Below are positions 5,703-21,457 of a stretch of 64,000 bases of DNA, piece by piece. A program made the translations under genes and the position numbers. The stretch comes from Solirubrobacterales bacterium. Its GTDB lineage: Bacteria > Actinomycetota > Thermoleophilia > Solirubrobacterales > JACPNS01. The notes under the pieces were generated by a model. The model was given only the letters and a program-made list of their open reading frames with translations. It made no database searches and was not told the DNA's origin. Positions within the stretch are counted from its first letter, which is position 1; each line of letters starts with the position of its first letter. The stretch lies in assembly GCA_016185345.1 (NCBI GenBank), contig JACPNS010000021.1, positions 124,001 to 188,000 on the forward strand, given 5' to 3'.

Positions 5703-5789
5703 AAGCGTTTGCGGGCGTGGATGCAACGCGCGTCTCACTACCGGCGCGCACCTGAAGGAACCCCGTCACCCTTGAAGAATTCAGGCACG

Positions 5790-16705: not shown

Positions 16706-16915
16706 TTCCCTTTAATGCAAGTTACCTTGAGTCCAAGACGCCTTGCGCCATTCCTCACAAGTGTCTATTAAGTCACTTAGTAAGTGGCTGCATGCTTACA
16801 TCGGTAGAACACGCTCAACCCATTAAAAGGTTCGCTGAGGTTCGCCCGGATGGGGTAAATTTTCCGTTGATCCAAAAAGCCCGCGTACGCTGCAGGCAAA
16901 TAGCAACACATATCC
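16706..16915. other. Intergenic region between paralogue C and tmRNA
   Basis: No gene seen. AGTCACTT (16771-16778) and AAGTGGCT (16782-16789) form an imperfect 19-nt palindrome. The tmRNA promoter must lie here, but I could not find a convincing -35/-10 pair. AT content is higher than in the flanking genes. Confidence 0.4.
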
Positions 16916-17271
16916 GGGGACGCCAGGTTTCGACGAGGCTGAATCCGTGGGTGGAGTTGCGAGCCGAGGTTGGTTGGAGGCCTCGATAAACCCCAACCAA
17001 AACCATAAATGCGGACTCTCACGAGTACGCCCTCGTCTAAATAAGACGAGGCATTCGTCCAGCATGGGCCCGTGTGCTGGGTAGCGGGTGTTAGCCAACG
17101 GGCTTGATCAGACCGCGCGTCTCAGGCGCCTGATGACATCTAACTGACGACTGGTCTCCCCGGACCCTTGCCGGACCGGCTAACGGGAGACGAGATCCAG
17201 AAATCCGGACACGCTCGTAGACGCTCTATTTCACGCAGTCGCGGACGCGGGTTCAATTCCCGCCGTCTCCA
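16916..17271 (+). ncRNA. ssrA: Transfer-messenger RNA
   Basis: Rescues ribosomes stalled on mRNAs without stop codons. The 5' GGGGACG (16916-16922) pairs with CGTCTCC (17264-17270) to form the acceptor stem, and GCGGGTTCAATTCCCGC near the 3' end is the T-arm. The tag frame starts at GCG 17011 and reads ADSHEYALV before TAA at 17038-17040; its end lies in a hairpin (CCTCGTC/GACGAGG). Discriminator base is A17271. CCA is not encoded and would be added by the Cca enzyme encoded at 34661. The tag resembles the mycobacterial one but ends ALV, not LAA. Ends are judged from pairing. Confidence 0.95.
17011..17040 (+). other. tmRNA tag reading frame (ADSHEYALV, stop)
   Basis: Resume codon GCG at 17011 is preceded by AACCATAAAT, a spacing usual for tmRNA. 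Nine codons and TAA follow. The C-terminal three residues are ALV. Confidence 0.85.
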
Positions 17272-17399
17272 TTTTGAGGTGCTGACTCGCACGATCTCGC
17301 CGATGCTCGGCGAGGAGGCTGCGGTCACGACCAGAGGGTCGCTCCCTTAGCCACCTCGCCTGCGCGTCGACGATCTCGCACGGTTCAGCGCCTCAAAAT
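17271..17399 (+). repeat. 129-nt structured element bounded by 15-bp inverted repeats
   Basis: ATTTTGAGGTGCTGA (17271-17285) and TCAGCGCCTCAAAAT (17385-17399) are complementary at 14 of 15 positions. Inside, GGCGAGGAGGCT (17309-17320) pairs with AGCCACCTCGCC (17349-17360) at 11 of 12 positions around a CGACC/GGTCG hairpin. Part of the same strand can instead pair upstream (CTCGCCGA 17296-17303 with TCGGCGAG 17307-17314). The 10-mer ACGATCTCGC occurs at 17291 and 17370. It could be a tmRNA 3' extension, a separate structured RNA, or a small mobile-element remnant. No open reading frame fits. Confidence 0.6.
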
Positions 17400-17430
17400 T
17401 TGCTGAAGGGGACTTGGATTAGATGGATTG

Positions 17431-17736
17431 ATGGGCGAGCGCGCTGGCGAGATCATTTCTGTTGGAGTCACTGAGCTTCACGATCGCACCAGCGAGTTGA
17501 TGCGGGCGGTGGAGGACGGTGCGGAACTCGAGGTCACCGACCGCGGAAAACCCATCGCTCGGATGTCGCCGCAAGGCCCGCAGGATCCATTGGCGCGCGA
17601 CGGCGACATTCGCAAAGCGACAGTTGGCCGCAGCAAGCTCCCGCCTCCGCTCAAGCTCAGATCGGGTGTGACAGTCTCTGATCTGGTGAAAGAGCAGCAG
17701 CTGCCAATCACTCCGTGGGAGTCGGATTCCGCCTGA
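17431..17736 (+). CDS. Phd/YefM-type antitoxin without a visible toxin
   Basis: 101 residues. The N-terminal part (ISVGVTELHDRTSELMRAVEDG, then a VTDRGKPIARMSP strand) is the Phd/YefM DNA-binding fold found in type II antitoxins. The C-terminal half is Pro-rich and ends in a VSDLVKEQQ segment where toxin binding would be expected. The partner, usually a PIN or RelE-like toxin, is not next door: the following gene is an alpha/beta hydrolase. A TTG immediately precedes the ATG at 17431. It sits just behind ssrA, a common insertion site for acquired DNA. It may be an orphan regulator or a remnant of a toxin-antitoxin pair. Confidence 0.75.
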   Translation: MGERAGEIISVGVTELHDRTSELMRAVEDGAELEVTDRGKPIARMSPQGPQDPLARDGDIRKATVGRSKLPPPLKLRSGVTVSDLVKEQQLPITPWESDSA

Positions 17737-17753
17737 TGCAAGCGCCAGGCGCG

Positions 17754-17759
17754 TAAGCT
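17754..17759 (+). promoter_or_regulatory. Possible -10 box, leaderless hydrolase
   Basis: TAAGCT ends 7 nt before the ATG at 17767; no ribosome-binding site is visible. Confidence 0.4.
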
Positions 17760-17766
17760 GACCGTC

Positions 17767-18687
17767 ATGTCGAACGCCCTGCGGCAACCGATGCCGGAAG
17801 TCCCCGGTGTCGAGCACATCTACGTGAATGCCGGCGGGCTTCGTATGCACGTCGCGGTTGCCGGTCCCGAAGATGGTGAGCCGGTGATGCTGCTCCACGG
17901 TTGGCCGCAACACTGGTGGCTTTGGCGCAATGTGATGCCGGATCTTGCGGCCGCTGGATACCGGGTCTATGCGCCCGACACTCGGGGGTTTGGCTGGAGT
18001 CAAGCCACGGATCGGTTCAGCGACTACGACAAGCGAAACCTTGCGCGCGACTTCATTGCGCTGCTTGACACGCTTGGCATTGAGAAGGTGCGCCTTGCTG
18101 GACACGACTGGGGCGGGTTCGCCGGATTCCTCGTGGCGATGATTGCGCCCGAGCGGGTTGATCGCTTTCTCGTCTTCAACATCACGCCGCCGTGGCTGGA
18201 CCCGCGTCCTTTCAATCTGTTCGCAGCGCTGAAGGCGCTTTCACGCCTTGGCTACCAAGTCGTCATGTCCACGCCGGGACTCTCGCGTTTCGCGCAGGCT
18301 GGCCCCGGCCGAAAGCTTTTCAAGGACGGCGTGACAAAGGGCAGCAAGACTCCCGAGATTTGGGGCGACGGCGCACTTGACACCTATCTCAATCAGTTCC
18401 TCTCACCGGAGCGTTCGACCGCGACCAAGTTCTTGTACCGGAGCTTCTTGGTGAAGGAGCTTCCTCTGATCCAGTTCAACAAGTACATGCCGGTCAAGCT
18501 CACGGTCCGTACGAAGATGGTCTTCGGGCTGGACGATGTGGCGATCGATCCCGATCTGATCACGAGCAACAAGCACTCGAACTACGCGACGGACTTCACG
18601 GTCGAAACCGTCGAGAACGCCGGCCACTTCATCGTTGACGAGCAGCCAGAACTTGCGACGGCGAAGCTGCTCGAGTTCTTCGCCTAG
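17767..18687 (+). CDS. Alpha/beta hydrolase, epoxide hydrolase/dehalogenase-like
   Basis: 306 residues. It shows the oxyanion HGWPQHWW motif (about residues 45-52), the nucleophile elbow GHDWGG with Asp114, and a C-terminal histidine in ENAGHF. Asp as nucleophile with HGxP is typical of soluble epoxide hydrolases and haloalkane dehalogenases; the substrate cannot be told from sequence. No signal peptide, so cytoplasmic. Its end overlaps the convergent hydrolase gene by 4 nt. Confidence 0.85.
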   Translation: MSNALRQPMPEVPGVEHIYVNAGGLRMHVAVAGPEDGEPVMLLHGWPQHWWLWRNVMPDLAAAGYRVYAPDTRGFGWSQATDRFSDYDKRNLARDFIALLDTLGIEKVRLAGHDWGGFAGFLVAMIAPERVDRFLVFNITPPWLDPRPFNLFAALKALSRLGYQVVMSTPGLSRFAQAGPGRKLFKDGVTKGSKTPEIWGDGALDTYLNQFLSPERSTATKFLYRSFLVKELPLIQFNKYMPVKLTVRTKMVFGLDDVAIDPDLITSNKHSNYATDFTVETVENAGHFIVDEQPELATAKLLEFFA

Positions 18688-19505
18688 TTCGCCGCTTCGA
18701 GTTTTTCCATGCGCCGTTCGGCCGCTTCAGCCAAGCCGCGGAAGAGTCGTTCCTGCTGATCCTCCTGGCGCGTCTGGCTTTCCGAGTGCCACTGCACGCC
18801 GAGCATGAAGTCGCGGTCGGCGGCCTGAATGCCCTCGATCACTCCATCCGGTGCCCAGGCGATCGCCTCGATGTTGCTGCCGAGCCTGTCGCAGCACTGG
18901 TGATGGAAGGAGTTCACGTGAGTTTCCGTGCGGTCTAGCGCGCGGTGGATCTTTGAGCCCTCTTTGATCGTCACGTCGTGGGTGGCAAACGCGCCGCCCT
19001 CTTCTTGCGAATGATTGATCGGGCTGTCGGGGAAGTCCTCGGGGATGTGCTGGTGGAGGGAGCCTCCGCGGGAGACGTTCATCAACTGAGTTCCTCGGCA
19101 GACCGTGAGGATCGGCATCTGACGGATGTCCGCCTCGCGGATCAGCCCGGTCTGGAACGTGTCGGTCATCAGGTTCGTCGGGCCGACGTAGTCGGTGCGC
19201 GCCTTGTTGTAGAGCGTAGGGTCGATATCTGGGCCGCCGCTGACAAACAGTGCGTCGACGTTGTCGAGAACCTGGCCGATTGCTCCGGGCATGATCGGCG
19301 GGATCACAAAAGGAATGGCGCCCGAGAGGAGGATCGCGCGGAGGTACTCGACGCTGATCACGAAGTCCTCGCGTGGCGGGTCGCCGCGCGGCACAATGCG
19401 CTCGCGCGCTGCTTCACGGAATTCTGAGCTCGACACGCCGATCGTTACGCGGCGGCTTGGCGAGCTGAGGCCTATCGGTCCGTCATAGGGCTGTGCGTCG
19501 TTCAA
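18684..19505 (-). CDS. Class I glutamine-amidotransferase-like gamma-glutamyl hydrolase (peptidase C26), copy 2
   Basis: 273 residues. It has the SGGPDIDP motif, the nucleophile cysteine in TVCRGTQLMN, and the His-x-Glu dyad in GVQWHSES. This matches the PuuD-type family that hydrolyses gamma-glutamyl amides such as gamma-glutamyl-GABA. Last gene of the minus-strand operon with a GCS2-type ligase, another C26 protein and a permuted ATP-grasp protein. It is a paralogue of the gene at 20666, with shared blocks throughout, but the N-terminal regions differ. Substrate unknown; the operon suggests a gamma-glutamyl or other amide-linked compound. Confidence 0.88.
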   Translation of the reverse strand: MNDAQPYDGPIGLSSPSRRVTIGVSSSEFREAARERIVPRGDPPREDFVISVEYLRAILLSGAIPFVIPPIMPGAIGQVLDNVDALFVSGGPDIDPTLYNKARTDYVGPTNLMTDTFQTGLIREADIRQMPILTVCRGTQLMNVSRGGSLHQHIPEDFPDSPINHSQEEGGAFATHDVTIKEGSKIHRALDRTETHVNSFHHQCCDRLGSNIEAIAWAPDGVIEGIQAADRDFMLGVQWHSESQTRQEDQQERLFRGLAEAAERRMEKLEAAN

Positions 19506-19523: not shown

Positions 19524-20669
19524 TCAGGCGAATTGATGAGCAAGACTGCCGACCAGTTCGGTCAGACTCGCGCCCGAGCGGACGATTTCGCGCTGGCGCT
19601 GGGCGCCGGTCTTGAAATCAATATCAAGCAGGTGGTCGAGTTCGCTCTCACAGCCGAGGTCCTGGGCGTGCGGGCGGGCGGCCTCGATCAAGAGGGGTAG
19701 CTGCTTGGCGATCGGAATGCGCGTTGAAGAATCAGCGTCGATCAGCTCGGCGTCGTAGCCGTCGCGCGCCGCGAGGAAGCGGTTCTCGTTCAGTGCCTCT
19801 TGAACTGAAGTCTGCTTCTCGCTGATCCAGCCCTCGTCGTGCTCGAGCTTGGCGATCGACTGAACCAGCGCGACCAGCGCGGCCGTTGAAGCTGAATCGA
19901 TCTGTGCATCCATCGTGCGGATTTCGATCGTGCCGAAGCGCGGCTGCGGGCGGACGTCCCACCATAGGTAGGTTGGCTCGGGAAAGCAGCCGGACCGGAT
20001 CATCAGGTCCACGGTCTCGACATACGCGGCGTAGTCGTCGAACTTCAACGGAATACCTACGCGGGGGAAGGCCTGAAAGAGGGGAGTGCGCGCGGATGCG
20101 AGGCCGGTGTCGCGGCCCTGCCAGTAAGGAGAGTTCGCCGAAAGCGCCAGAAGCAACGGCACGTGGGCGCGCAGGCGGTTGTACGAACGGATCGCGTCCT
20201 CTGCATCGCCGACGCCGATGTGCACGTGCAGCGCAAAGGTCGGTTCGCGTCGTGCGAGTTCGCGCATTGAGCCGTAGAGGCCCTGGTAGCGCTCGCCACT
20301 GGAAATCACTGTCTGGTACCAGACCGCCTGCGGGTGGGTGCCCGAGCAGGCGACCTTCAGGGCGAGGGGTTCGAGCTCGCGCTTCAACCGGGTGCGAATG
20401 TCGTTCAAATCTTCGATTGCGTCACTGACGCGTTCATTGACGCCTGTCGCAAGTTCCACTGCCGAGCCGTGCGTCTCCGGGGTCAGGCGATCTGCAAGCG
20501 AAGGCGAGACGGTGCGCAAGACGTAGTCGATGCTCTGCGCGAGGGTGGCGTCCTGGGTGTTCAGCAGCATCACCTCTTCCTCTATGCCGACGGTCCAGTT
20601 CGGGAACTTTCCGCCGCCCCATTCTGCCCAAGCGGGCGCTTCGGTCATTGGCTCGGTTGGGGAACTCAT
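19524..20669 (-). CDS. Carboxylate-amine ligase, YbdK-type glutamate-cysteine ligase (GCS2)
   Basis: 381 residues of the GCS2 family. The ATP/metal-binding start WTVGIEEEVMLL, ACSGTHPQAVW, and FALHVHIGV are recognisable. The family forms an amide between a carboxylate, usually the gamma-carboxyl of glutamate, and an amine using ATP. YbdK itself has weak gamma-glutamylcysteine activity. The start at 20669 overlaps the upstream C26 gene by 4 nt, so the two are coupled. Enclosed by two amide hydrolases and preceded by a permuted ATP-grasp ligase: the same pathway may contain both synthesis and cleavage. Confidence 0.88.
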   Translation of the reverse strand: MSSPTEPMTEAPAWAEWGGGKFPNWTVGIEEEVMLLNTQDATLAQSIDYVLRTVSPSLADRLTPETHGSAVELATGVNERVSDAIEDLNDIRTRLKRELEPLALKVACSGTHPQAVWYQTVISSGERYQGLYGSMRELARREPTFALHVHIGVGDAEDAIRSYNRLRAHVPLLLALSANSPYWQGRDTGLASARTPLFQAFPRVGIPLKFDDYAAYVETVDLMIRSGCFPEPTYLWWDVRPQPRFGTIEIRTMDAQIDSASTAALVALVQSIAKLEHDEGWISEKQTSVQEALNENRFLAARDGYDAELIDADSSTRIPIAKQLPLLIEAARPHAQDLGCESELDHLLDIDFKTGAQRQREIVRSGASLTELVGSLAHQFA

Positions 20670-21457
20670 ACGGCCTGGAATCTCCTTGTCGAGGCTTCAC
20701 TGCGGTACCGCGCAGCTGCGTCGGCCAAACCGCGGAAAAGTGCCTCGTGCTCATCGCGGTTGGTCAGGCTCTCGGCGTGCCACTGCACGCCAACTACGAA
20801 GTCACGATCAACTGCCTCCATACCTTCGACGATCCCTTCGGGGGAACGCGCGCTGATGCGGAGTCCGGCGCCGAGCTTCTCGACGCTCTGGTGGTGAAAA
20901 GAGTTCACTTCGGCCTGCGCTTCGCCGATCGTGCGCGCCAGCAATGAGCCGGGCTCGATATCGACGGCGTGGCTGGGGTGGTGCCCCAGTTCCTTCTGTC
21001 GGTGAGCCTCGGCTTCGTTTCCGTATACGTCCGGGATGTGTTGGTAGAGGGTGCCGCCGCGGGCGACGTTCAGAACCTGCATGCCTCGGCAGATCGCGAG
21101 GATCGGCATGCCCCGTGCGTCGGCCGCGCGGGCGAGGGCAATCTCAAAGGTGTCTGTGGCGAGTTCGGTCGGGCCGAGTTTCTCGTGCGGCGCCTGGCCG
21201 TAGGTGCTCGGGTCGATGTCTGGACCGCCCGAGAGGCAGACGGCGTCAACGGTCTCGAGGATCGATTCAATCGTGTCGCGGTGCATCGGCGGGATGATCA
21301 GCGGCACTGCGCCGACCTGCTGAACCGAGTTGAGATATGGGATACCAAGGCAGATCTCACGGTGGGGCGGCTCGCCCTTGGGGATCTGCTTCAAGTGCTC
21401 GGGCACGCGGATCTCGGAGCTCGAGACGCCAATCACTGGGCGCGGCGAGCTGTTCAT
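20666..21457 (-). CDS. Class I glutamine-amidotransferase-like gamma-glutamyl hydrolase (peptidase C26), copy 1
   Basis: 263 residues with SGGPDIDP, nucleophile cysteine in AICRGMQVLN, and GVQWHAES carrying the catalytic His and Glu. Paralogue of the gene at 18684. It begins 22 nt after the ATP-grasp gene and overlaps the GCS2 ligase by 4 nt. Two diverged copies in one operon suggest different substrates, or a hydrolase and a transferase form of the same fold. Confidence 0.88.
   Translation of the reverse strand: MNSSPRPVIGVSSSEIRVPEHLKQIPKGEPPHREICLGIPYLNSVQQVGAVPLIIPPMHRDTIESILETVDAVCLSGGPDIDPSTYGQAPHEKLGPTELATDTFEIALARAADARGMPILAICRGMQVLNVARGGTLYQHIPDVYGNEAEAHRQKELGHHPSHAVDIEPGSLLARTIGEAQAEVNSFHHQSVEKLGAGLRISARSPEGIVEGMEAVDRDFVVGVQWHAESLTNRDEHEALFRGLADAAARYRSEASTRRFQAV

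What the first reader, a model, noticed from the sequence alone, without database searches (positions are those of the whole stretch)
17271..17399. 129-nt element bounded by 15-bp inverted repeats directly behind tmRNA
The outer arms match at 14 of 15 positions and enclose a second long stem (11 of 12) with an inner hairpin. A shared strand (around 17307-17314) can pair either upstream or downstream, so two folds compete, as in regulatory RNAs. It starts at the last base of tmRNA and ends before a Phd-type antitoxin. It could control tmRNA 3' processing, regulate the antitoxin, or be a miniature mobile element in a known insertion hotspot.
Basis: partly seen in the sequence, partly recalled or inferred. 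Interest (0 to 1): 0.65.

Follow-up and report, generated by a model that had tools for sequence, protein, structure and literature searches.

The report
Mobile hairpin repeat behind RNA genes
The 129-letter fold-back sequence right behind this bacterium's tmRNA gene is one copy of a scattered repeat that sits exactly at the 3' ends of tRNA, tmRNA and protein genes, in this genus and in several distant bacterial groups; it behaves like a small mobile element rather than a private switch of tmRNA.

Summary
17271-17399 folds into one long hairpin (z -8.2). It is not private to tmRNA. The own genome has two more copies, flush behind tRNA-Cys and tRNA-Ile. In five genomes of the genus, 20 of 30 distinct model hits begin at a tRNA or tmRNA 3' end, all 20 in one orientation. 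The apical motif GGTCACG-stem-CGCTCCC recurs in Solirubrobacterales, Dormibacterota, Chloroflexi and Myxococcota records; there 50 of 75 nearby gene stops lie 44-56 nt before it (null 60 of 698). At tRNA-Cys one species has the element between the tRNA and its terminator while another has the same terminator without the element. So it is an insertion and not the terminator. The arms differ between copies yet stay complementary; outer-arm mismatches show no G-U excess over A-C (6:9, against 20:6 in tRNA stems), which points to DNA-level upkeep such as template switching. The proposed competing fold is perfect in 1 of 14 scorable copies. Best reading: a new family of non-autonomous hairpin elements placed at gene 3' ends, ERIC/REP-like in kind. 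The mobilising enzyme is unknown.

The parts
16916..17271 (+). tmRNA (ssrA), host gene of the insertion
   Evidence: ARAGORN; Rfam RF00023 157.1 bits
17271..17399 (+). hairpin element; starts at the last base of tmRNA
   Evidence: fold z -8.2; model hit 130.9 bits; copies
17271..17285 (+). 5' outer arm
   Evidence: 14 of 15 complementary to 17385-17399
17385..17399 (+). 3' outer arm
   Evidence: 14 of 15 complementary to 17271-17285
17323..17346 (+). apical core GGTCACG-stem-loop-CGCTCCC, the part conserved across taxa
   Evidence: core start 17323, 52 nt after the tmRNA end; invariant columns in A2; pattern searches

Best explanation
The window holds one copy of a family of non-autonomous hairpin elements of about 120-130 nt, inserted flush and in one orientation at the 3' ends of genes: tRNA and tmRNA genes in this genus, mostly stop codons of protein genes in relatives. 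SHOWN: a multi-copy family; exact 3'-end placement; fixed orientation at tRNAs; presence and absence at the same gene between species; insertion upstream of a native terminator; decay by deletion; arms that vary but stay complementary; a conserved apical core in several phyla. INFERRED: an unknown enzyme acting in trans recognises the apical core or hairpin and places the element at gene 3' ends. The element is then transcribed with the host gene; at tRNA and tmRNA it would leave with the 3' trailer, because it starts where the trailer starts. The outer arms are kept complementary by copying one arm from the other in DNA (replication template switching), which can also run a few bases into the host gene; selection on a folded RNA is not needed for that.
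For: Two further copies in the own genome directly behind tRNA-Cys and tRNA-Ile. 20 of 30 distinct model hits in the genus start at a tRNA or tmRNA 3' end, 20 of 20 in the same orientation. Filled and empty tRNA-Cys sites align cleanly through the terminator. tRNA-Ile: full, arm-only and half-deleted forms in five species. 50 of 75 nearby gene stops 44-56 nt before the core, null 60 of 698. Upstream genes are housekeeping genes, not cassettes. A hairpin lies between rpsL and rpsG. Outer arms: 545 Watson-Crick, 6 G-U, 9 A-C, 23 other against tRNA stems 20 G-U, 6 A-C; helix 1 has 61 two-sided and 6 one-sided changed cells. Template switching is documented as a keeper of stems (PMC8794818, abstract).
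Against: No mobilising enzyme was found; Y1 homologues in the genus sit with other palindromes. No target-site duplication was seen, and junctions were not tested systematically. The core and the orientation are conserved, which selection on an RNA would also give. The G-U/A-C test is small and its copies are not independent (p 0.04 for the outer ten positions). The G003:C25 site gave no clean empty comparison. No transcript data exist.
Confidence: 0.62

Rival explanations
1. A selected RNA element: a 3'-UTR or trailer hairpin with a conserved apical protein-binding site that protects, processes or ends the transcripts of the genes it follows.
For: Fixed orientation and fixed distance to the gene end; strong two-sided covariation, 0 of 500 shuffles; conserved apex in several phyla; orthologous position behind tRNA-Ile in five species.
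Against: No G-U excess in the outer arms; few one-sided changes; present or absent at the same gene between species and degraded by deletion; a native terminator still follows at tRNA-Cys; lies between rpsL and rpsG.
Confidence: 0.22
2. A REP-like repeat mobilised by a REP-associated tyrosine (Y1) transposase.
For: Weak Y1_Tnp homologues in 4 of 5 genomes of the genus; REPs also lie behind genes and can supply stop codons (PMC3733652, abstract and passages).
Against: None of the ten Y1 loci read has the core, only sub-threshold model hits; L258, L264 and L266 carry other palindromes; core-rich g30 genomes such as G055, G076, G109 and G131 are not among the 17 with a Y1 match.
Confidence: 0.08
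3. One reading: two competing folds that regulate tmRNA 3' processing or the antitoxin.
For: The 8/8 alternative helix is present in this copy.
Against: The alternative is not kept in other copies. The element occurs at many unrelated genes. tmRNA lacks it in two of the four species whose tmRNA 3' end was read.
Confidence: 0.03

Closest known systems
ERIC / RU-1 (127-bp enterobacterial repeats)
   Same: Size, imperfect palindrome, between genes and transcribed with them (PMC2229807, passages)
   Different: Flush at gene 3' ends incl. tRNA and tmRNA; outer arms vary between copies while the apex is kept; other hosts. The ERIC consensus itself was not compared.
REP / REPIN repeats with RAYT transposases
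   Same: Behind genes, palindromic, ends can supply stop codons (PMC3733652, abstract and passages)
   Different: REPs are 20-40 bp with a GTAG or CGTC tag (PMC3733652 abstract); here 120-130 nt and no Y1 gene flanked by it was found
Rickettsia palindromic elements (RPE)
   Same: 105-146 bp long stem-loops; found in tmRNA (PMC2229807, section 9)
   Different: RPEs are fused inside genes; this element stops at the gene end
Integron attC sites
   Same: Imperfect hairpin directly behind genes; pairing matters as DNA (recalled, no call)
   Different: Apex rather than base conserved; behind housekeeping genes and tRNAs, not gene cassettes
Intrinsic transcription terminators
   Same: Hairpin behind genes
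   Different: A separate native terminator follows at tRNA-Cys; no terminator-like site scored at the window element

Membership tests
REP/RAYT system | Unit of 20-40 bp with an unpaired GTAG or CGTC tag at one end | tested here: not met
   Full copies are about 120-139 nt in most of 65 hairpins; aligned ends show no constant terminal tag. Definition from PMC3733652 abstract.
REP/RAYT system | RAYT gene flanked by the repeat | tested here: not met
   0 of 10 Y1 loci read contain the core
ERIC / RU-1 | ERIC consensus sequence | not tested
   No ERIC sequence was compared
ERIC / RU-1 | Imperfect palindrome of about 127 bp in transcribed spacers | tested here: met
   Size and palindrome met; transcription itself only inferred from position
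Rickettsia palindromic elements | Insertion inside genes, read in frame in proteins | tested here: not met
   Copies start at gene 3' ends; not tested for every copy
Integron attC | Conserved 7-bp boxes at the base of the hairpin (recalled) | tested here: not met
   Outer arms vary between copies while the apex is conserved
Intrinsic terminator | Short GC-rich hairpin followed by a T run | tested here: not met
   No plus-strand terminator-like site in window 16800-17800; native terminator separate at tRNA-Cys
Known Rfam RNA families | Covariance-model match at or above the gathering score | tested here: not met
   Window: only tmRNA; element region at E up to 10: no family other than tmRNA near its gathering score; nine other loci: only a tRNA reached its score

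The most novel reading that the evidence does not exclude
A directional transposition system, so far undescribed, that recognises a conserved hairpin apex and writes it flush onto the 3' ends of tRNA, tmRNA and protein genes in several bacterial phyla, with the outer arms rebuilt at each site from the host gene's own end.
Probability: 0.25. Interest if true: 0.82.

Novelty: new variant of a known kind. Interest (0 to 1): 0.6.

Why it matters
If right, this is a multi-phylum family of hairpin elements whose target is the boundary of a gene rather than a sequence, which raises the question of what machinery can read that boundary. It is also a natural test case for telling DNA-templated covariation from RNA selection: by the usual covariation test it would be called a conserved RNA.

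Tried and rejected
RAYT mobilisation: Y1 homologues exist in 4 of 5 genus genomes, but none of the ten loci read holds the core and several hold other palindromes. Rfam identity: none. Phage or plasmid carriage: no phage match and one plasmid match covering 30% of the query; the 7 viral stretches with the core are not among the 65 sites that passed as hairpins. Cassette idea: upstream genes are housekeeping. Terminator idea: rejected and on rpsL-rpsG. A first orientation analysis with overshooting element ends and a first hairpin alignment with a non-specific score (null median 21 against threshold 22) were discarded and redone. A first tRNA-stem control was out of register and was redone. The G003:C25 filled/empty comparison was unusable. 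A phylum-wide sample found the core in 2 of 396 genomes, one of them the window's own, so the distribution is patchy. Paper searches show nothing on this motif or family in their listings.

Full report
What was reported and whether it is there. The window carries tmRNA at 16916-17271. From its last base to 17399 runs a single long imperfect hairpin: outer arms 14 of 15 complementary, RNA energy -76.6 kcal/mol, z -8.2, 0 of 200 shuffles as stable. The second claim, a switch between two folds, rests on an 8/8 local helix that is perfect only in this copy: of 16 aligned copies 14 have the motif, one (the window) has 8 of 8 and the rest 2 to 5 of 8.

It is a repeat. A DNA search of the own genome returned the window copy and two others at 80% and 72% identity. 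ARAGORN puts the first directly behind tRNA-Cys(gca) and the second directly behind tRNA-Ile(gat). Relatives of the same genus gave many more. I aligned 16 of the 23 places printed; the seven dropped were truncated, partial or tandem copies or a fragment (L035 second copy, L038 second copy, two of L041, L045, L048, L049). A covariance model from them found, over 61 genomes, 30 distinct places in the five genus genomes once antisense hits to the same places are removed. Twenty of the 30 begin at a tRNA or tmRNA 3' end: tmRNA twice, tRNA-Cys, Ile, Val, Ala (tgc, ggc, cgc), Lys (ctt, ttt), Met and Ser (gga, gct), always on the strand of that gene. Six of the other ten are second or later copies in tandem arrays or at contig ends in G003. 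One (G003:C7:67760) follows a 3' fragment of tRNA-Val, one follows a protein stop codon (L037), and two have no RNA gene next to them. The five genomes have 201 tRNA matches, so 18 of 201 tRNAs carry a model-detected copy directly behind them.

It is an insertion. At tRNA-Cys, G000 has the element and G004 does not. Removing the 125-nt element from G000 leaves a sequence that aligns with G004 through the tRNA, a trailer of similar length, the intrinsic terminator and the sequence beyond it. The element therefore entered at the tRNA end and upstream of the tRNA's own terminator. At tRNA-Ile all five species show it: full in G000, G002 and G003, reduced to its outer arms in G001, only the 5' half in G004. 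It is therefore old there and decays. Behind tmRNA it is present in G000 and G004 and absent in G001 and G003; no tmRNA over the family cut-off was found in G002. In G001 a copy begins at the stop codon of a protein gene; the same gene ends at the same place in G000, G004 and G003. G004 and G003 lack any insert of that size, and G000 has a longer spacer without the core there.

It reaches beyond the genus. The apical core GGTCACG-stem-CGCTCCC was searched as a pattern. In the order, genomes of genus g30 hold up to 27 exact cores against 0-2 for the reversed control; G003 holds 18 against 0. Most named ones are Solirubrobacterales, Thermoleophilia or unplaced Actinomycetota MAGs, but Dormibacterota, Chloroflexi, myxobacterial, Coriobacteriia (Slackia), Opitutales/Verrucomicrobia and Bacteroidales records also appear; a few are expected by chance. 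The geometry is the check. Of 106 distinct core sites with enough flank, 75 have a long ORF ending nearby, and in 50 of the 75 the stop lies 44-56 nt before the core; random positions give 60 of 698 (Fisher 2e-29). On the other strand it is 18 of 60. The tmRNA end is 52 nt before the core. Sites with an ORF stop 41-60 nt before the core: Dormibacterota 7 of 9, one Chloroflexi MAG 3 of 3, two myxobacterial records 2 of 2; Slackia 0 of 2, other Coriobacteriia 0 of 1, Bacteroidales 0 of 1. So the reach into the last three rests on core and fold alone. Ten upstream proteins include SecA, ribosomal protein S7, GlpX, GTP cyclohydrolase II, exonuclease VII small subunit and methylmalonyl-CoA mutase. 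In one record a hairpin lies between rpsL and rpsG (rpsL recognised from its C-terminal residues, by recall). A sample of 396 genomes of the phylum had the exact core in only two, one of them the window's own: distribution is patchy.

How the arms behave. In the genus alignment 94.1% of cells pair, 30 of 43 pairs change on both sides, and no shuffle of 500 reaches either figure; the structure was derived from the same alignment. Ordinarily this would be read as a conserved RNA. Two details argue otherwise. In helix 1, 61 cells are changed on both sides and only 6 on one side. In 65 of 181 core sites that pass a threshold above the 99.5% null, positions 41-50 from the core are 93% Watson-Crick, with 6 G-U, 9 A-C and 23 other mismatches; the null maximum, 27.5, exceeds the threshold of 12, perhaps because random positions can fall in real hairpins. 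Acceptor stems of 49 tRNAs from the same loci show 20 G-U and 6 A-C. Fisher p is 0.04 for positions 41-50 and 0.0007 for positions 31-75 (36:58), with related copies not independent; nearer the core G-U does exceed A-C, there mostly as states shared by descent (my reading). Selection on an RNA helix tolerates G-U but not A-C; copying of one DNA arm from the other favours neither. Template switching during replication is described as a source and keeper of perfect stems (PMC8794818, abstract). The palindrome also runs into the host gene. Behind tRNA-Ser copies the 3' arm is complementary to about 5-8 bases of the tRNA end, differs between species as that end does, and in one case (G002, gga) fits with a mismatch. 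Behind tRNA-Ala genes and two tRNA-Lys genes the bases CCA are mirrored by TGG.

Mechanism. Shown: repeat family, exact and oriented placement, insertion, decay, constant apex, changing arms. Inferred: mobilisation in trans by an unknown enzyme, co-transcription with the host gene, loss with the 3' trailer at tRNA and tmRNA, and arm upkeep by template switching. The Y1 transposase lead failed: weak homologues occur in 4 of 5 genus genomes, yet the ten Y1 loci read contain no core and only sub-threshold model hits, and several carry other palindromes.

Comparison with the known. In kind it resembles ERIC, REP and RPE repeats (PMC2229807, passages and section 9; PMC3733652, abstract and passages). 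REPs too lie behind genes and can supply stop codons, and an RPE is reported inside tmRNA. It is not filed under any of them: the REP features tested failed, the ERIC consensus was not tested, and RPEs enter genes rather than stop at them. No Rfam family matches. The nine paper searches listed under Tried and rejected show no description of this family in their listings.

Verdict. Observation confirmed; interpretation partly supported (the mobile-element option). New variant of a known kind; interest 0.6.

Noticed in passing
L258 (G000:C8:97000-99800), minus-strand ORF with a Y1_Tnp match: A RAYT-like Y1 transposase gene (237 aa) is bracketed by another palindrome (CTACAAGGTTGC...GCAACCTTGTAG) on both sides; similar genes in G003, G002 and G004.
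   Followed up: partly
L044 (G003:C7:66800-68800), element at G003:C7:67760-67887: A copy follows a 3' fragment of tRNA-Val with no intact tRNA found by ARAGORN, as if a tRNA 3' end and element were duplicated together.
   Followed up: no
L038, L041, L087, L088 (G003): Tandem copies whose later units lack the 5' outer arm; contigs end in these arrays.
   Followed up: no
L173, about position 5710: One copy appears to start inside the apical loop of another copy's remnant, so the element may itself be a target.
   Followed up: no
window 17428-17736: Phd/YefM-like antitoxin ORF, below Pfam's cut-off; the next ORF (17767-18687) is an alpha/beta hydrolase, so no toxin gene lies directly downstream.
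   Followed up: partly
window 17182-17847: ARAGORN's second tmRNA call is overlapping and looks spurious; Rfam gives only the first.
   Followed up: yes
window 18684-19505 and 20666-21457: Two ORFs with similar amidotransferase-like translations lie on either side of a third ORF (judged by eye only).
   Followed up: no
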